Notes: generated from the letters alone by a model not told the origin. A stretch of 64,000 bases of DNA from Thalassospiraceae bacterium LMO-JJ14 (GCA_021555105.2 CP134604.1:248001-312000); one strand, 5' to 3'; positions 35,067 through 58,528 are shown, counted from the first letter of the stretch. Numbers and translations: made by a program.

Positions 35067-35114
35067 GCCGGCAAGGCGTATTGGCGTGCCCGGTTCGGAC
35101 CAGGCAGAACCTCA

Positions 35115-35187
35115 CATCCATAAAAGGGCGCACATTGAAAATGGTGCACCCGGCAGGATTCGAACCTGCGGCCCCAGGATCAGGAAT
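35115..35187. repeat. island boundary repeat containing a truncated tRNA-Arg 3' half
   Basis: 73 bases match 40391-40463 with about 8 mismatches and no gaps. The copy holds the acceptor 3' strand, T arm, variable region and 3' side of the anticodon arm of tRNA-Arg plus about 30 bases beyond its 3' end, then diverges. It is the expected remote att copy of an element integrated at the 3' end of the intact tRNA gene. Bases 35191-35298 hold no gene I can support; on the minus strand a short run before a stop could be a relic of an integrase tail. Confidence 0.85.
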
Positions 35188-35298
35188 TTTGATGAACGGG
35201 CTAGCGGCGAGACGGGAGGAACACGGAAGACAAGGGTGAGGTTAGGCCTGCGACTTCACGTCTATCCTGCTCTATCGCCCGTTAACCTGCTTTTTCCG

Positions 35299-35421
35299 CT
35301 TCATTTGTGCCATGAGTGTGCCACGGGATAATTTGTGCGTGGCGGCTATAAAAATCCCATAGCCTTTGCATATACTCAGGAATGGGACGCAAGCAGGATT
35401 ACGCGATGCATCTGATTTTTA
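35299..35421. repeat. promoter/leader block P1 of Sel1 gene 1
   Basis: About 122-base block ending in the first codons of the Sel1 gene at 35406. A closely similar copy is at 36610-36732 and a shorter one at 38185-38260. Shared landmarks are GGATAATTTGTGCGTG, CTATAAAAATCCCAT, TTTGCATATAC and CAGGAATGGGACGCA. It probably carries the promoter and leader of each cassette and serves as a homology block. Confidence 0.75.
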
Positions 35422-36296
35422 TAGCGCTCGTTGGCTTCGCCGCGTTGATGTGGTCACCGCTCGCCACAAGTTCGAACGAGCGGAAAACCATCGACGGGGT
35501 CCCCTGTGCCGTGGTCGCAACATATTCGAATGACCCGAGTGACATGACCCGCGAACAATTATTCTACGCCGCCCATGCCTATGACAGTGGTGACTGTGGT
35601 GCAGAAGACGACGCCCGCGCATTCCCATTTTACAAGGAAAGCGCTGAACGAGGCGATGGTTTGGCCATGATCCGCGTAGGATATTCTTACCTGAACGGAA
35701 CCGGCGTCGAGCGAAACGCAGAAAAAGCAAAGTACTGGTTCCGAAGTTACGCATTGGCGCACCCTGACGAGAACGTCAACGAGTGGACGGGCATGGTCGA
35801 TACGTTTTTCTACGGTGAACCATTGCCCGACCTGTTTCTTGAAGTAATGAAACAGGCTACCCAAGACTATAACAGCGAGGCTGATGTGTTATTGCGCAAC
35901 TACCACGACCTTTCGTCCGGCAATGGTGTTAAAGCCGATCCGTCTCGTGCGAGAACCTGGTTGTTTCAAGCCGTCGAATTAAATGACCCTCGCGCGCATT
36001 TTGAATACGCTGAATTGCAACGTGATAGAGGGAACCCGAGCGGATACGTTGTTCACATTCGAATTGCCGCCGAGTTCAATTCTTCGAAAGCGCAGGCGGA
36101 AATTGGGAAGCTATATCTCACCGGAAACGGCGTTATGCATTGGCCATACAAAGCATTGGTTTGGTTCCTTTGTGCGAAAGCAGGCGGGCAGGATGTCGAT
36201 GCATTGATCGCCAAAGCTGAAGCTCAGCTAGATGCCCTTAACATTAAACTAGCACAAGAAGAGGCAACGAAATTCATAGAGAAGAACACTCACTGA
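35406..36296 (+). CDS. exported Sel1-repeat protein, cassette 1 (putative immunity protein)
   Basis: 296 residues from the ATG at 35406. The signal peptide is hydrophobic (MHLIFIALVGFAALMWSPLA). Sel1-like repeats include AFPFYKESAERGDGLAMIRVGYSYLNGTGVERNAEKAKYWFRSYAL and GKLYLTGNGVMHWPYKALVWFLCAKAGG. AT-richer than the core genes. The stop directly abuts the stop of the convergent tip remnant at 36297. Some known immunity proteins against secreted toxins (Tli5-type) are Sel1-repeat envelope proteins, so immunity is the likely role here; that is inference. Confidence 0.75.
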   Translation: MHLIFIALVGFAALMWSPLATSSNERKTIDGVPCAVVATYSNDPSDMTREQLFYAAHAYDSGDCGAEDDARAFPFYKESAERGDGLAMIRVGYSYLNGTGVERNAEKAKYWFRSYALAHPDENVNEWTGMVDTFFYGEPLPDLFLEVMKQATQDYNSEADVLLRNYHDLSSGNGVKADPSRARTWLFQAVELNDPRAHFEYAELQRDRGNPSGYVVHIRIAAEFNSSKAQAEIGKLYLTGNGVMHWPYKALVWFLCAKAGGQDVDALIAKAEAQLDALNIKLAQEEATKFIEKNTH

Positions 36297-36611
36297 TTAT
36301 ATCTTTTCGCCACATTTCGCTTCGTACTGTTTGCGCAGGTTCATCAGCTTAGTTTGCGATTCTGCCAGTTTCCTTTCGAGAAATTTTAATCCTTTTTGGG
36401 ATTTTTCGACCGCGCTCTCCCCCCATCACCGGCAGCTTGACGCTTCACCGGGGTGACCACCTTCGGGTGGGTTGTCCCACTCGAAGACTTTTCCGTCCCG
36501 TTCCGCATGTTCGGATCGAACTTTGCTGTCGCCCCGCGTGCGCCAGATGTATTTTCCGGATTTCTTTCCGCTTTCCGCCAATGCGACCCGGATCGCTTTT
36601 TCGGTTTGGCT
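36297..36611 (-). pseudogene. decayed MuF-like toxin module, cassette 1
   Basis: Minus-strand remnant. It reads TEKAIRVALAESGKKSGKYIWRTRG and ERDGKVFEWDNPPEGGHPGEASSCR in frame with the intact protein at 39322-40155, then a TGA (36426-36428). After it, still in frame, comes a coiled-coil tail (KGLKFLERKLAESQTKLMNLRKQYE) resembling the end of the cassette 2 module. The central variable part is deleted and an in-frame stop also lies at its 5' edge, so it cannot make protein on its own. Confidence 0.75.
36428..36604. repeat. MuF homology block M1
   Basis: Minus-strand coding repeat shared with 37972-38172 (M2) and 39755-39949 (M3). It covers the segment from TEKAIRVA to NPPEGGHPGE and is strongly conserved at DNA level. 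M1 lacks about 20 bases at its 5' coding edge compared with M2 and M3. M1 directly abuts promoter block P2. Confidence 0.8.
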
Positions 36612-36732
36612 TCATTTTAGCATGAGCATGCCGCGGCATAATTTGTGTGTGGCTGCTATATAAAGCCCATGGCCTTTGCATATACACAGGAATGGGACGC
36701 ATCCAGGATTGCTCGATGCATCTGATTTTTAA
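36610..36732. repeat. promoter/leader block P2
   Basis: Second copy of the P block. It keeps the ATG and first codons of the cassette 1 type signal peptide (MHLIF at 36716) but then runs into a stop after seven codons. The working Sel1 gene 2 starts further downstream. This marks a recombination scar inside the start region of an immunity gene. Confidence 0.75.
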
Positions 36733-36797
36733 CGACTAATCCTTACATAGAGCTTTTCATGCAGGTATTACTGATACAAATGCTCAAGAAACATGCC

Positions 36798-37538
36798 ATG
36801 CGACATATCATTCTGATTTTCTGTATTATGACATTATTCCCCACACCCGTTCTGGCAACAATGTGGGGCGCTGATTGCGAGCGTGACCTTTCGTTCGCTG
36901 CAGAAATCAGTATTTCAGACTTTAATCGCCAATTCGCCACAAATGGCTCGTTCGATGAGAGCTATCCTCGATACCTTGCCATCAGATATGCACCCTGCGT
37001 AGACGCCGTCGCTATAGAGGCGGAAAGATACGATTGGGTTAGGCATCCCAATAGTCGCGTGCCATTCATGACAGAGTTCTACAAAACCCGGGATCTACTG
37101 AAAGGCGACCCCGCCGATATTTATGCACTTGCAAAGACATATCAAACGGACGGACCGGAGTTAGACCGGTTGTTACGTTCGCTGTTTCTTCATTGGGCTG
37201 CGGAAAGGGAATATGCGCCCGCTCAGTTTGAGGTGTTAAAAGATCTTATTGAGCAAGACTCGATCACCAATGATACGACAATTAACCGAATTGCGCTTGT
37301 TGCGGCAGAGGGGTACATCCCGGCCATGCTGTTTGTTGCTCAAAACTTCTTAACCGGTGAGCATGTGCAAGAAAATTTAGGCCTAGCGTATTATTGGCTG
37401 AGGCGCGCCAAAAACGCGAACGCCGACATTGCTAACATTACAAAAGAACCACTTGAGCAACTTTGGATAAGACTCTCCGCGCAAGATAAGAAATTCTTCT
37501 CCCGAGCCGAACGGGCCTATGGCGCAGTTACGCCATAG
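36798..37538 (+). CDS. exported Sel1-like protein, cassette 2 (putative immunity protein)
   Basis: 246 residues from the ATG at 36798 (MRHIILIFCIMTLFPTPVLA signal peptide); ATGs at 36759 and 36780 are possible earlier starts. Sel1-like repeats include PAQFEVLKDLIEQ and YIPAMLFVAQNFLTGEHVQENLGLAYYWLRRAKN. Sequence differs from cassettes 1 and 3 although the layout is the same. It converges on the orphan MuF module at 37586 with 47 bases between the stops. Confidence 0.72.
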   Translation: MRHIILIFCIMTLFPTPVLATMWGADCERDLSFAAEISISDFNRQFATNGSFDESYPRYLAIRYAPCVDAVAIEAERYDWVRHPNSRVPFMTEFYKTRDLLKGDPADIYALAKTYQTDGPELDRLLRSLFLHWAAEREYAPAQFEVLKDLIEQDSITNDTTINRIALVAAEGYIPAMLFVAQNFLTGEHVQENLGLAYYWLRRAKNANADIANITKEPLEQLWIRLSAQDKKFFSRAERAYGAVTP

Positions 37539-37585
37539 GCCTCAGCACGTTTTCATTTCCCGGATTCACAACGCTTAAGAGCAGC

Positions 37586-38257
37586 TTACGCATCTTCATA
37601 CGCCGTTTTGAGATTCAACCATTTTGACTGTAGCTCTTTAAGTTGCTGCTCTAACTTCCTCAATCCCGTTTCACTTTGCTTTAGGTCTGCTTCGATTTCC
37701 TGCAGCACCCTCGACGATATTCTTTCTCCGGCTTGGAAAATCCATCCTGCGAAACGACCCAGTGGATGTGGCGCCATTGTCAGAATACCGCCAGCCTGGG
37801 CAACTTTATTGACGTGATAATAGAAGTCTTTGTCCGCACGGTGTTTCTCGACATCCAACCGAGCATTATGAACCTTGGCGCGGGCTGTAAAGAGTTCCCC
37901 GTCGACAAGGAAATATGCTTTCCGTATTTGCTCCAACGCCAACTCTTCACGATTACAGTTGATCTCCATCGCCCGGCAGCGGCAGTTAGGCGCTTCGCCC
38001 GGGTGACCACCTTCGGGTGGGTTGTCCCACTCGAAGACCTTGCCGTCCCGCTCTGCGTGCGCGGAGCGCACCTTGCTGTCGCCCCGCGTGCGCCAGATGT
38101 ATTTTCCGGATTTCTTGCCGCTTTCCGCCAATGCGACCCGGATCGCTTTTTCAGTGTCGTCGCCGGGACGCCTTGCTTGCTTGGCTTCATTTGAGCCATG
38201 AGCATGCCACGGGATAATTTGTGCGTGACTGCTATAAAAATCCCATGGCCCTGCCAT
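37586..38257 (-). pseudogene. orphan MuF-like toxin module, cassette 2 (no native N-terminus)
   Basis: Frame is open but lacks the peptidoglycan-binding N-terminus seen in cassette 3. It enters at RRPGDDTEKAIRVALAES, carries the MuF-like block (DGKVFEWDNPPEGGHPGEAPNCRCRA) and then a distinct C-terminal tip of about 130 residues. The tip has helices, a hydrophobic stretch (AGGILTMAPHPLGRFAGWIF) and a coiled-coil end (LRKLEQQLKELQSKWLNLKTAYE). The only ATG in range (38257) lies in promoter block P3, so expression is doubtful. It could be a stored tip that can recombine onto the complete gene. Confidence 0.7.
37972..38172. repeat. MuF homology block M2
   Basis: Second copy of the MuF coding block, near-identical to M3 over most of about 195 bases, including the CCGGGACG edge missing from M1. 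It abuts promoter block P3. Confidence 0.8.
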
Positions 38258-38260
38258 ATC
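38185..38260. repeat. promoter/leader block P3
   Basis: Third, shortened copy of the P block (GGGATAATTTGTGCGTGAC, GCTATAAAAATCCCATGG). It lacks the CAGGAATGGGACGCA part and the old start codon. It lies 43 bases before the Sel1 gene 3 ATG. Confidence 0.7.
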
Positions 38261-38302
38261 TCTAACATGGTCGATCAACGTTTTCGTATTTAGAGTGTTC
38301 CC

Positions 38303-39328
38303 ATGTTTCGCATCCTTGCAATCCTCTGCCTTTTGCTTTCTTCCTCGGCTTTTGCCGAGGATACGGACGATCCTGTCGCGATCTTGCTTAAAGGTAATAA
38401 TCTGCAAGAGAGTGATTGCCCGGAACTCGTACGCTTCCTTAATAATCAATCTGTGTCCAAACAGGAAAGGCATGAAGACGCCCCGATTACGGTCGCGCTT
38501 TCATACCGTATTCTGGTTCTTGGCTGTCCGATGCGGTTCATGACAACACCGATCAATGCACTCCTTCGATCGGAAATACCGGCAACCCGCGAAGACGTCT
38601 CCGTCTCTCTCGGCGCGGCATATGAATACGGAGTGCGCGTAGACCGTGATCTCGACGAGGCGCGCTATTGGTACCGCAAACTTGCGTACAGGCTTATCGG
38701 TCAACCTGAATTTTATTTGAAATTTACCCGCCAACGTATCGCACGAATCAACCCCGTTCACCGGCTCATGAGTTCGGAAGACTGGTCTGCGGCAATGGAC
38801 AAGGGCGCGTTGGCGTCCGTGATTTTCGAGGAAGAACTTCTAGCCGTTCAAGAACTCATGAACGGGCCTGTCAGCGGCATCGTCCGGGCGAGCGAGCATC
38901 TTTATCGCGGCACCGGCGGTTTTCCGCGCGACAAGAAAATCGCCAAAAAAATTCTCTATGATGCCGCGCGGGATGGCAAACCGGAAGCTCAGTACGCCTT
39001 CGCCATCGCTCTATTGGATCGTCGTTTTTCCATTCTAGGCCAAGAGCGTCAATTCCAACGAATGCAGGCAGAACGTTATCTAACGATGGCTGTGAATCAA
39101 AATCATCTTCCGGCTATCCTCAAACTTGCGGAGATATGTGAAAGCACAACCAATTGGCACAATGATGTCGCAGCCTATGCGCTTTATCGAAAGGCGGCGC
39201 ACGAAGGCGCAACAGGCTTTGAAAAGCAACTGGAACGACTTCGCGCACGTAATCAACTATACTTGGACAGCGAACTTGAACGGATCGAAAGATGGATTAA
39301 TGACGGGATAGGTCCCGCCTGCTATTGA
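38303..39328 (+). CDS. exported Sel1-repeat protein, cassette 3 (putative immunity protein)
   Basis: 341 residues. Signal peptide MFRILAILCLLLSSSAFA. Sel1 repeats: SVSLGAAYEYGVRVDRDLDEARYWYRKLAYRL, YDAARDGKPEAQYAFAIALLD and AAYALYRKAAHEGATG. It ends convergently with the complete toxin gene, with a 7-base overlap of the coding ends (39322-39328). This is the pair in which both partners look intact. Confidence 0.78.
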   Translation: MFRILAILCLLLSSSAFAEDTDDPVAILLKGNNLQESDCPELVRFLNNQSVSKQERHEDAPITVALSYRILVLGCPMRFMTTPINALLRSEIPATREDVSVSLGAAYEYGVRVDRDLDEARYWYRKLAYRLIGQPEFYLKFTRQRIARINPVHRLMSSEDWSAAMDKGALASVIFEEELLAVQELMNGPVSGIVRASEHLYRGTGGFPRDKKIAKKILYDAARDGKPEAQYAFAIALLDRRFSILGQERQFQRMQAERYLTMAVNQNHLPAILKLAEICESTTNWHNDVAAYALYRKAAHEGATGFEKQLERLRARNQLYLDSELERIERWINDGIGPACY

Positions 39329-40155
39329 TCCGAACATTCTAGCAATTCAAACTTTCGCCAAGTATTCCGCAATATAGCTAGTGCTTCGTTGACGTCTTTG
39401 AGAGCGTATTCGCGGTCTTTCTCGATCAGTTTGAACTCTTCGGCCAATCGAGCATATTCCAGTTCCAGTTCCCCATACGCAACCAGTATCCTGACGAGAT
39501 CGGCCGGCGCACCCGGGTCCAGCCGCCGCCGTAAGAGCGACTCAATTGAAGCACCGCTATAGTACACGCGAGCCTCAGTCGCGAGCTTCGCCTTCTGCGC
39601 CCGGTTTGCTTTAAGTTTCATGGATTGCTCGTTCACACGATTATCTTGGATGTTGAAACGCGTCTTAGCAGCGTCAAGGTTATTTCCATCAACTTCGAGT
39701 TGAAGCTTAAGCCGCGCACATGCAGCTTTGTTGTCTTTCACATCCTCCGCCAAGCACCGGCAGTTGGGCGCTTCACCGGGATGACCGCCCTCGGGCGGGT
39801 TATCCCAGTCGAAGACCTTTCCGTCCCGCTCTGCGTGCGCGGAGCGCACCTTGCTGTCGCCCCGCGTGCGCCAGATGTATTTTCCGGATTTCTTTCCGCT
39901 TTCCGCCAACGCGACCCGGATCGCTTTCTCAGTGTCGTCGCCGGGACGCACCTCGCCCGTCCGGCGGAGGCCTTTGTCGCGCTGCAGGTCGGTAACGGCA
40001 TCGAACAATTGGTCATCGGGATAAGGTGTCATGCCGTAGCCGGGCGTCTTGTAATACCCGAGCCGTCTGAGCGCGATCTTGGTCTCCATTGCATCATCAA
40101 GATCGACGTTCGCATTCGATGCCAGCGGCGCTTTGAGAGAGAAACGTTTGGTCAT
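39322..40155 (-). CDS. peptidoglycan-binding / MuF-like protein with variable tail (putative phage polymorphic toxin)
   Basis: 277 residues, the only full-length member of the array. N-terminal domain (about 15-80) resembles phage peptidoglycan-binding modules (METKIALRRLGYYKTPGYGMTPYPDDQLFDAVTDLQRDKGLRRTGEVRPGDDTEKAI). Then a MuF/SPP1-gp7-like block (about 85-135: YIWRTRGDSKVRSAHAERDGKVFDWDNPPEGGHPGEAPNCRC). The C-terminal tip (about 140-277) is helical and coiled coil. MuF-domain proteins are a known class of polymorphic toxins carried by temperate phages. No catalytic motif is evident in this tip, so toxicity is inferred from architecture and the paired Sel1 gene. Confidence 0.78.
   Translation of the reverse strand: MTKRFSLKAPLASNANVDLDDAMETKIALRRLGYYKTPGYGMTPYPDDQLFDAVTDLQRDKGLRRTGEVRPGDDTEKAIRVALAESGKKSGKYIWRTRGDSKVRSAHAERDGKVFDWDNPPEGGHPGEAPNCRCLAEDVKDNKAACARLKLQLEVDGNNLDAAKTRFNIQDNRVNEQSMKLKANRAQKAKLATEARVYYSGASIESLLRRRLDPGAPADLVRILVAYGELELEYARLAEEFKLIEKDREYALKDVNEALAILRNTWRKFELLECSDQ
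39755..39949. repeat. MuF homology block M3 (within the complete gene)
   Basis: Third copy of the MuF coding block, inside the intact gene. Upstream coding sequence for the peptidoglycan-binding domain is present only here, so this is the likely acceptor for tip exchange. Confidence 0.8.
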
Positions 40156-40390: not shown

Positions 40391-40463
40391 CATTCATAAC
40401 AGGGCGCACATTGGAAATGGTGCGCCCGGCAGGATTCGAACCTGCGGCCCCAGGATTAGGAAT
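40391..40463. repeat. att-like direct repeat overlapping tRNA-Arg
   Basis: Partner of 35115-35187 (about 89% identity over 73 bases). It covers the 3' half of the intact tRNA-Arg gene and 30 bases past its 3' end. The pair bounds the Sel1/MuF island. Confidence 0.85.
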
Positions 40464-40494
40464 CCTGTGCTCTATCCTACTGAGCTACGGGCGC
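40421..40494 (-). tRNA. tRNA-Arg (anticodon CCT)
   Basis: 74 bases fold as a complete tRNA: acceptor GCGCCCG/CGGGCGC, D arm GCTC/GAGC, anticodon stem CAGGA/TCCTG with loop TTCCTAA (anticodon CCT, decoding AGG), T arm with TTCGAAT, discriminator A, no encoded CCA. Its 3' end faces the island, the usual geometry for integration by a tyrosine recombinase. Confidence 0.95.
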
Positions 40495-56210: not shown

Positions 56211-57815
56211 CTAGTCGGAGAATCCGAGCATCGACGTATAGGACTTCGTCAGTTTCTCAGGCCCGTTTTCGGCGAGCGCCGAACGGAATGCATCCGTGGT
56301 CTTAGGCCCGATATCACCGTCGACCTTGAGCGGTTCCGGTGCGGGCTTGTTCCGCTCTTGGGCCGCCTTTGCGCCCAGATCGTTCAGGCTCTCCTGCAAC
56401 GTCTCGGCCGCGACTTTCGGCTTCCCAGCCCCGAACAGAGGCTGCACCTCTTTCTCGACGGTCCGTTTGAGACCCGACGCCGAGCCGCCGGTGTTACGCT
56501 CGGTCTCGGCGAAGTTTCTGAATCGTCCGATACCGAACGCTTCCTCGGCCCTGCCGGCGCCGTGACGCGCAACGGTGCGTTTCAGCGCCGCCTTGGTCTT
56601 CGGCCCGGAGACCCCATCGACCTTGAGCACGTCGCCAAACATCGACAGGCCCGACTGCAACGCCTTCACCACGTTTGTCTCGCCGTCATCATGCACGGGC
56701 TTGGCGATCCGCGCCGCGAACCGTTGCAGTGCGTCCGCCACCGGCTCACCGTTCGGTGACGCCAAAGCCTTCGGTTTCTCAGGCATCTTGCGCACCGGTT
56801 CGGGTGCGATCATGCGCCCGGTGGCATCGTTATCAACGGGTTTGTCGCCGTAGTTGAGAACATAGAAACCACGGCGCAGGTTTTCGATCTCAAGGCGTCT
56901 GGGATCGTTGGATTTAAGTTTCCATGACCATTGACCGAGCGCCTTGGCCTCGTCCTCGGTCAGATCGTCGACGGGTTTGAGCATCAGATCGTCGAGGTCA
57001 CTTTCGAATCCGCCCGCGCCCAGGTCTGTGCCCTGGTCCGTGCCTTGATCCGTACCACGGCCATTCTTGCCGCTGGCGACAATCGCCATTGCCTTGGCCC
57101 GCGCGGACTCCGGCACGCTGTCAGAAGTCGCATCACCGTCGTCAGTTTGCGGCGCGTTCGTTTCGGCATCCTCGGCAGCATTCCGCGCCGCCTCGGCCCC
57201 AAGTCCCACGCCCACAGGCGCTTTGGAAACTTCGTCCGGTTCGGCTCTCGGTTTTTCGACATCGTCCGGGACCAGTTCACCACCTCGTTTCCAGTACTCA
57301 CGGATCGCTTTGCGGCGCTCTGCACCCGGCTTTGTCTGGGAGATAATCTTTTCCATATCGCGGAGATGACCCCGGCGTTGCGCCAGATCACCTGCGCCAT
57401 AGCCAAAATCACCCATTTCATCGAGTTCCTGTTCGGTGAACATCTTGTCGATGCGTGCGTCCGCACCGGATGCATCCAGCGCGCCCTGCGCAAGTTCAAC
57501 GCAGTTTTTACCGAATAGCTCATATTCGCCCGGATTGGCCCGCGCATTGGCAATGTATTCCGCTGCCTTCTGCGCTTGCTCCTTCGTCATGGGGATTGAT
57601 CGCTCAATAACGGTCGACTTGCCTTTGCGCTCGGAATCATCCCGCACTACCCCCGGCGCACCACCGATGACGGCGCCGACTTTCCCGGCAATTGTTTTAT
57701 CTCGAAGATGCTTTCCGATGATCGGCTCATCGATGCCCGGACCGGTCACGCCAACCGAAAAATGTCCGAATTCGTCGCTTTTGTCGGCATAAATTGTCAG
57801 TTTGTAATCGCTCAT
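56211..57815 (-). CDS. peptidoglycan-binding protein with papain-like N-terminal tip (putative phage toxin B)
   Basis: 534 residues. The tip (about 1-125) has a His in DEFGHFSVGV (His18) and a Cys in ELFGKNCVELAQGAL (Cys105). That His-before-Cys order and spacing fit permuted NlpC/P60 or LRAT-like papain folds, which act as amidases, acyltransferases or peptidases. An acidic low-complexity linker with GTDQ repeats follows, then from about residue 277 a C-terminal half shared with the 47950-49503 protein, with peptidoglycan-binding repeats (VLKVDGVSGPKTKAAL, LKVDGDIGPKTTDAF). A divergent membrane-protein gene lies next to the tip. Confidence 0.75.
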   Translation of the reverse strand: MSDYKLTIYADKSDEFGHFSVGVTGPGIDEPIIGKHLRDKTIAGKVGAVIGGAPGVVRDDSERKGKSTVIERSIPMTKEQAQKAAEYIANARANPGEYELFGKNCVELAQGALDASGADARIDKMFTEQELDEMGDFGYGAGDLAQRRGHLRDMEKIISQTKPGAERRKAIREYWKRGGELVPDDVEKPRAEPDEVSKAPVGVGLGAEAARNAAEDAETNAPQTDDGDATSDSVPESARAKAMAIVASGKNGRGTDQGTDQGTDLGAGGFESDLDDLMLKPVDDLTEDEAKALGQWSWKLKSNDPRRLEIENLRRGFYVLNYGDKPVDNDATGRMIAPEPVRKMPEKPKALASPNGEPVADALQRFAARIAKPVHDDGETNVVKALQSGLSMFGDVLKVDGVSGPKTKAALKRTVARHGAGRAEEAFGIGRFRNFAETERNTGGSASGLKRTVEKEVQPLFGAGKPKVAAETLQESLNDLGAKAAQERNKPAPEPLKVDGDIGPKTTDAFRSALAENGPEKLTKSYTSMLGFSD

Positions 57816-57954: not shown

Positions 57955-58039
57955 CCGTTCATAATCGAAACTGACAACCACCTGGAGAACACACATGCCA
58001 ATGCAAGAGCTATTCATGCGCAGCCGAAACGGCATCGTG
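57955..58039. repeat. 85-base repeat R at the start of membrane gene 1
   Basis: Matches 59577-59661 with 5 mismatches. It contains leader, ribosome-binding site (TGGAGA), ATG and 15 codons (MPMQELFMRSRNGIV) of the putative immunity gene. A 24-base partial copy is at 58528-58551. Confidence 0.85.
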
Positions 58040-58528
58040 GCGACACTGATCGTTATAACTGTCGTGATGTACCTTTTGCCGCAGGCCTACATCTTGGTGC
58101 AGGTCGTGAAGACAAATGAATCGGTTTCCACACTTATCAGTATCGCGTCGATTGAAATTCTCTGGATATATTACTGGTACCCACTGGCAGGACTTTCCGC
58201 AGTAAACGCGTTGATAATTTTTCGCACAGAGCGATTGAGAAAACGTGTCGCCTTTTGCCTCGTGGCAGCAGCTATGTGGCTCTTTTTTATCGTAAATCTT
58301 ATAACAGTAATCCAATTCGCAATACCAGGGTGGCTTACATTTGTGCTCGGCATTTCAATACTCGCGTACCCCCCCTACTTTTTGCTCCGATGGATACTTC
58401 GAGATGAATGCCGGTTTTCCGGTTCGGTTCTTGAACACCTTGCCTTCTATGCCGCTTTCGCGCTGCCCCAGATGTATATTGTTTTTCGCGGCATGCTGGA
58501 CCCCAAATTCTTTGAGTTCTTTTTCTGA
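57995..58528 (+). CDS. multi-TM membrane protein next to toxin B (putative immunity protein)
   Basis: 177 residues with about four to five TM helices: VATLIVITVVMYLLPQAYIL, IEILWIYYWYPLAGLSAVNALIIF, VAFCLVAAAMWLFFIVNLITVIQFAI, WLTFVLGISILAYPPYFLLRWI. AT-rich, plus strand, divergent from toxin B. Its end (PYFLLRWILRDECRFSGSVLEH) resembles the end of the 58840 gene. Integral membrane immunity proteins are known for several envelope-targeting toxins; here the role is inferred. Confidence 0.7.
   Translation: MPMQELFMRSRNGIVATLIVITVVMYLLPQAYILVQVVKTNESVSTLISIASIEILWIYYWYPLAGLSAVNALIIFRTERLRKRVAFCLVAAAMWLFFIVNLITVIQFAIPGWLTFVLGISILAYPPYFLLRWILRDECRFSGSVLEHLAFYAAFALPQMYIVFRGMLDPKFFEFFF

What the first reader, a model, noticed from the sequence alone, without database searches (positions are those of the whole stretch)
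35406..40155. Tandem array of convergent toxin-tip / Sel1-immunity cassettes
Three cassettes in a row share the plan promoter block - Sel1 gene -> <- MuF module. The convergent 3' ends are 0, 47 and -7 bases apart, so the variable tip always touches its partner gene. The flanking P and M blocks are conserved, while tips and Sel1 genes differ. Only the last MuF module has the complete N-terminus with a peptidoglycan-binding domain. This is the layout expected of a polymorphic toxin with stored tip-immunity pairs. MuF-domain phage toxins are known; I do not know of a convergent Sel1-paired array of this type.
Basis: partly seen in the sequence, partly recalled or inferred. Interest (0 to 1): 0.88.

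Follow-up and report, generated by a model that had tools for sequence, protein, structure and literature searches.

The report
Swappable phage-type toxin and immunity cassettes
A marine alphaproteobacterium carries a row of three interchangeable pairs, each a variable toxin-like tip facing a secreted guard protein, whose tip and guard are swapped as one unit between species; the design is known from other bacterial weapons but this face-to-face, phage-linked version is new.

Summary
Three Sel1-type genes (+) each face a MuF-motif module (-), with 3' ends 0, 47 and -7 nt apart. Only the last module has a full N-terminus. Two congeneric genomes are about 85% identical on both sides, yet unrelated from the end of the Sel1 signal peptide to the MuF motif: a natural one-piece swap. 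All 25 pairs examined are convergent. Tips are predicted long helical hairpins with a Cys at each base; partners carry secretion signals, which points to an encounter in the periplasm. A second, independent three-cassette array lies in a prophage starting 11 kb downstream, and related toxins sit in prophage structural gene blocks. No carrier has a T6SS. tRNA 3'-end duplications bracket several solitary pairs. One correction: both 'stored' tips here are broken while all three Sel1 genes are intact, so the array stores immunity rather than usable toxins. Best reading: a MuF-type polymorphic toxin with convergent periplasmic immunity. Toxicity is inferred, not shown; superinfection exclusion remains a real rival.

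The parts
39322..40155 (-). Full-length toxin: PG_binding_1-like N-terminus (aa 24-69), MuF C-terminal motif (aa 85-135), helical-hairpin tip 1 (aa 135-277)
   Evidence: Pfam, AF2 model pLDDT 86.6, 100-genome search
38303..39328 (+). Sel1-1, predicted secreted partner of tip 1; 3' end overlaps the toxin by 7 nt
   Evidence: nearest relative is the partner of the nearest tip (G002)
37586..38209 (-). Orphan MuF-tip 2 module; no N-terminal domain of its own; ends early, before the conserved C-terminal Cys
36759..37538 (+). Sel1-2, intact partner of tip 2 (likely start at 36798)
36297..36599 (-). Orphan MuF-tip 3 remnant; stop in the MuF end, most of the tip deleted
35382..36296 (+). Sel1-3, intact partner of tip 3 (likely start at 35406); relative of the Sel1 paired with tip 3-type toxin in G005 and G044
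38174..38259 (+). P block of cassette 1 (conserved 5' block of Sel1-1)
36598..36731 (+). P block of cassette 2
35288..35421 (+). P block of cassette 3
40418..40494 (-). tRNA-Arg(cct), intact, at one edge of the array
35107..35187 (-). att-like duplicate of the tRNA-Arg 3' end plus downstream bases (74/81 identical), at the other edge

Best explanation
It is a polymorphic toxin locus of phage (MuF) type. The full-length protein has a peptidoglycan-binding N-terminus and a MuF C-terminal motif, which inference suggests handle carriage and docking, then a variable hairpin tip that acts on the envelope of a target cell. The gene facing each tip makes a secreted Sel1/TPR-like repeat protein that sits in the producer's periplasm and binds and neutralises that tip. 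New tips arrive together with their guard as one cassette joined at the MuF motif. The older cassette is pushed away from the N-terminal part, its tip decays, and its Sel1 gene is kept as immunity against relatives still using that tip. Shown here: layout, co-variation, one-piece swaps, decay of orphan tips, prophage linkage. Inferred: toxicity, periplasmic site, delivery by phage particles or lysis, neutralisation by binding.
For: Tip-Sel1 Mantel r 0.86, P 1e-4, unaffected by N-terminal distance (r -0.02; partial 0.86); still 0.85 with ends trimmed and 0.74 without the overlapping group. Natural swap L035/L037: about 85% DNA identity over 4.6 and 8.2 kb flanks, no match over the 1.2 kb of Sel1 and tip; L075/L079: 93% up to the MuF end, then no match. 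25 of 25 compiled pairs convergent. Second array in prophage L034, and G005 prophage array L036. Toxin genes in prophage structural contexts: L150 after a head-tail connector, L148 beside holin and terminase, L089 near a tail gene. Other proteins with the same MuF motif end in known envelope enzymes: YkuD/Tlde1 (E 1e-8) and, weakly, phage lysozyme/pesticin. A Cys at each tip base in nearly all MuF-type tips, and a second register-matched pair in one group. A MuF toxin with neighbouring immunity genes has been shown to be toxic to bacteria (Bxa, PMC11699363).
Against: No tip matches a known toxin domain; PDB fold search gave no hit at E<=1e-3, only generic coiled coils, colicin hairpins and weak alpha-pore toxin hits. 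No tip is strongly hydrophobic. Many pairs are solitary with no phage genes nearby, so delivery is unknown. Pfam recognises Sel1 in only 10 of 25 partners. Distances are between related sequences and many genomes are MAGs.
Confidence: 0.72

Rival explanations
1. Superinfection exclusion: the tip is the part of a virion ejection protein that crosses the envelope, and the prophage's periplasmic Sel1 protein binds it and blocks DNA entry of phages with the same tip, as T4 Spackle does with the gp5 lysozyme. The array is then a record of phage types.
For: Toxin genes in prophage structural blocks; partners carry secretion signals; convergent orientation suits expression in a lysogen; tip-Sel1 co-variation; Spackle precedent PMC7677548.
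Against: Intact toxin genes persist in solitary loci among housekeeping genes, where a virion part has no use; related MuF tips are Tlde1/YkuD enzymes, a typical interbacterial toxin.
Confidence: 0.13
2. Remnant of phage head proteins with no present function; Sel1 genes are unrelated neighbours.
For: MuF motif resembles head-morphogenesis proteins; orphan modules are degraded.
Against: Tip-Sel1 co-variation, 25 of 25 convergent pairs, intact ORFs in many genera, exact cassette swaps.
Confidence: 0.05
3. T6SS effector-immunity pairs, as for Sel1 immunity proteins of Klebsiella.
For: Sel1E neutralises VgrG4 (PMC7108748); Tlde1-like tips in relatives.
Against: T6SS sheath gene VipB absent from 17 of 17 carrier genomes, 9 of them near complete.
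Confidence: 0.03

Closest known systems
MuF polymorphic toxins of temperate phages (PMC5576092; Bxa, PMC11699363)
   Same: MuF motif followed by a variable C-terminus with an adjacent partner gene; prophage linkage
   Different: Only the C-terminal half of MuF, behind a PG-binding domain; often solitary; partner is convergent, large, repeat-type and secreted rather than a small downstream ORF; hairpin tips match no known toxin domain
Orphan cdiA-CT/cdiI and rhs-CT/rhsI modules (PMC3150448)
   Same: One full toxin followed by displaced, N-terminally truncated tip fragments each with its immunity gene; a conserved motif marks the junction; tip and immunity exchanged together
   Different: Immunity genes are on the opposite strand with their own 5' blocks; no CdiB/TPS or Rhs parts; orphan tips here are broken
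Pore-forming (ionophoric) colicins (PMC9517006)
   Same: Immunity gene on the opposite strand with its own promoter; envelope-acting toxin
   Different: No sequence relation; immunity is a secreted repeat protein, not an integral membrane protein; no receptor or translocation domains recognised
T4 Spackle superinfection exclusion (PMC7677548)
   Same: Periplasmic protein proposed to bind a virion-borne envelope-acting domain
   Different: Sel1 fold, cassette arrays with many types, solitary chromosomal copies

Membership tests
Polymorphic toxin systems | Constant N-terminus joined to unrelated or strongly diverged C-terminal tips | tested here: met
   N-terminus vs tip distance r about 0; swaps at the MuF end
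Polymorphic toxin systems | Adjacent partner gene that co-varies with the tip | tested here: met
   Mantel r 0.86, P 1e-4
Polymorphic toxin systems | Tip is toxic and partner neutralises it | not testable with these tools
   needs expression assays
MuF polymorphic toxins | MuF (PF04233) domain | tested here: met
   17 of 17 toxins match, but in the window toxin only profile positions 59-110 of 112
MuF polymorphic toxins | Gene in the portal/terminase module of a prophage | tested here: inconclusive
   true for L150, near for L148 and L089; false for the window array and solitary loci
MuF polymorphic toxins | Small ORF directly downstream on the same strand | tested here: not met
   partner is convergent and 180-459 aa
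CDI/Rhs orphan module arrays | Truncated tip fragments plus immunity genes beside a full toxin | tested here: met
   modules 2 and 3
CDI/Rhs | CdiA/Rhs repeats with VENN or DPxGL junction | tested here: not met
   Pfam finds only PG_binding_1 and MuF beyond chance coiled-coil hits
Pore-forming colicins | Pore-forming domain homology | tested here: not met
   no Pfam or fold hit to a colicin pore domain
T6SS effectors | T6SS in the genome | tested here: not met
   VipB absent in 17 of 17 carriers
Superinfection exclusion proteins | Partner blocks phage DNA entry | not testable with these tools
   no infection assay possible

The most novel reading that the evidence does not exclude
The cassettes are a protein-based memory of phage types: each Sel1 gene is a type-specific periplasmic exclusion factor against one hairpin tip carried by phage particles, collected in arrays as tips decay and moved between genomes in tRNA-bracketed, integrase-less units.
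Probability: 0.1. Interest if true: 0.9.

Novelty: new variant of a known kind. Interest (0 to 1): 0.62.

Why it matters
It adds a phage-linked toxin/immunity family to the Rhodospirillales with an unusual face-to-face layout, a new tip architecture (long helical hairpin with a Cys at each base) and a repeat-type secreted guard. The many natural tip-guard pairs in one fold make it a ready system for asking how specificity is swapped, and whether MuF proteins really travel in phage particles, which was predicted in 2012 and is still open.

Tried and rejected
T6SS delivery: no sheath gene. Obligate link to the neighbouring prophage type: its capsid family occurs in 156 of 317 order genomes and in about 11 of 17 carriers, no clear enrichment. 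Tips in cultured phages: among the listed hits only the MuF region matches, no tips; the prophage toxin has no match in phage records or viral contigs. Viral contigs: 74 of 75 readable MuF ORFs end within 60 aa of the motif, i.e. plain head proteins. Strong promoter in the P block: none beyond chance. PADLOC: no hit. PDB sequence search: Sel1 repeat proteins for the partner, nothing usable for the toxin. An empty tRNA site to prove insertion was not found. Complexes of tip and Sel1 could not be modelled with the tools. A disulfide was not measured in the models, only inferred from sequence register.

Full report
OBSERVATION. The window is G000:C1:248001-312000 of a 3.89-Mb one-contig genome. 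Named relatives of the same loci are Rhodospirillales MAGs, one labelled Hwanghaeella. Reading leftwards from tRNA-Arg: the full toxin (39322-40155, -), Sel1-1, P block, orphan MuF-tip 2, Sel1-2, P block, orphan MuF-tip 3, Sel1-3, P block, then an 81-bp 91% copy of the tRNA 3' end. The MuF blocks are 82-91% identical to one another.

STATE OF THE ORPHANS. Module 3 has a stop in its MuF end and only about 40 residues of tip. Module 2 ends before the C-terminal Cys present in nearly every other tip; residues resembling a tip end continue past that stop for about ten codons (direct reading). Neither module has its own N-terminal domain. All three Sel1 frames are open with signal-like N-termini. 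What is kept is the partner gene. In CDI, orphan immunity is expressed while the orphan toxin appears not to be made (PMC3150448), which is the closest parallel.

RELATIVES. The full toxin finds MuF-bearing relatives in the same genus and order, and its PG-binding N-terminal domain is widespread in the order. A MuF-motif profile finds 19 of 317 order genomes at E<=1e-8, 17 of them with strong matches. Open flanks show that hairpin-tip genes are followed by a convergent, secreted helical-repeat gene at -40 to +47 nt where both frames are intact. I compiled 25 pairs (20 MuF-type loci or frameshifted relatives and 5 prophage pairs) and all are convergent. In other Alphaproteobacteria the same motif carries other C-termini with same-strand or convergent partners.

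CO-VARIATION. In 18 MuF-type pairs tip and Sel1 distances correlate at r = 0.86 (P = 1e-4); N-terminus vs Sel1 gives -0.02 and N-terminus vs tip 0.00; the partial correlation is 0.86. Trimming the ends, which share bases in overlapping pairs, leaves 0.85; dropping the overlapping group leaves 0.74 (P = 9e-4). The window's own pairs behave likewise: tip 1 and Sel1-1 are both nearest to G002, tip 2 and Sel1-2 both nearest to NORP128 and G260. The P value assumes exchangeable loci; relatedness is partly handled by the N-terminal control.

SWAPS. G005 (L035) and G002 (L037) hold one pair each downstream of the same gene, gshA by my reading. Their DNA is about 85% identical for 4.6 kb up to the Sel1 signal-peptide region and for 8.2 kb from the MuF end on, with no match between. 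L075 and L079 match at 93% up to the MuF end and then not at all. These are metagenome assemblies, so chimeras are possible in single cases, but the pattern recurs.

SECOND ARRAYS. A prophage starts at about 51.2 kb of the window (terminase E 4e-77, tail protein E 3e-147, holin E 3e-33) and runs past its end. In it (L034:11267-15921) a long coiled-coil toxin and two orphan tips alternate with three convergent secreted repeat genes. G005 has the like (L036). MuF-type toxins also lie after a head-tail connector (L150), beside holin and terminase (L148) and near a tail gene (L089).

TIP STRUCTURE. AF2 models of the window toxin (pLDDT 86.6) give two long helices, 143-198 and 218-271, after the MuF strands. 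The L082 toxin is also helical through the tip, at lower confidence (77.5). Cys residues lie near both ends of nearly all MuF-type tips; one group has a second inner pair at positions that match across a hairpin (for example 9/151 and 51/105), as expected of disulfide staples. Partners carry signal-peptide-like or membrane-anchor N-termini (by eye). Together these suggest meeting in the periplasm; this is inference. Fold searches give no confident match; weak hits include colicin E hairpins and the alpha-pore toxins SmhB and AhlB.

MOBILITY. Besides the window, tRNA-Phe 3'-end copies (47-51 bp, 96-100%) bracket solitary pairs in G088 and G187, and a tRNA-Met copy brackets a related MuF gene in L117. 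I recognised no integrase in the G088 or G187 intervals. Insertion is likely but an empty site was not found, and in the window a deletion history is also possible because G002 and G005 carry a pair beside the same gene without the tRNA copy.

MECHANISM. Best reading: phage-type toxin with convergent periplasmic immunity (0.72). The convergent layout lets the guard be made independently of the toxin operon, as in ionophoric colicins, whose immunity gene lies on the opposite strand with its own promoter (PMC9517006). Sel1 proteins can be immunity proteins (PMC7108748). Main rival: superinfection exclusion (0.13), by analogy with Spackle (PMC7677548).

COMPARISON. MuF toxin genes are described as followed by a small ORF in 89% of cases (PMC5576092). 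The convergent, repeat-type, secreted partner, the hairpin tips and the array were not found in the papers searched; that search covers open-licence papers only.

Noticed in passing
window 56211-57815 (-) and 57995-58528 (+): Prophage gene with PG_binding_3 and PG_binding_1 domains and weak endolysin hits faces away from a small, apparently multi-membrane-span protein on the other strand: possibly another toxin/immunity pair.
   Followed up: partly
L245 902, 2645, 7773, 19195; L246 2583, 5340, 6491: Repeated 29-53-nt tRNA-Phe 3'-end fragments (plus the full tRNA at L245:902) punctuate stretches of ordinary genes in two relatives, like boundaries of tRNA-bracketed cassettes; no integrase recognised by eye.
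   Followed up: partly
L034 9546-11163: HipB/HipA-like gene pair (by eye) between the prophage array and the capsid gene.
   Followed up: no
L092 5707-6633, L100 5731-6756: MuF-motif proteins ending in a YkuD/Tlde1 domain or a lysozyme/pesticin-like domain in other Alphaproteobacteria.
   Followed up: partly
L145 8247-15001: Very large open frame (over 2251 aa), adhesin-like by eye, directly beyond the tRNA-Phe bracketed toxin pair.
   Followed up: no
L045 4385-5523: Transposase genes (IS3-like by eye) follow directly on the tip 1-type toxin, whose frame is cut short.
   Followed up: no
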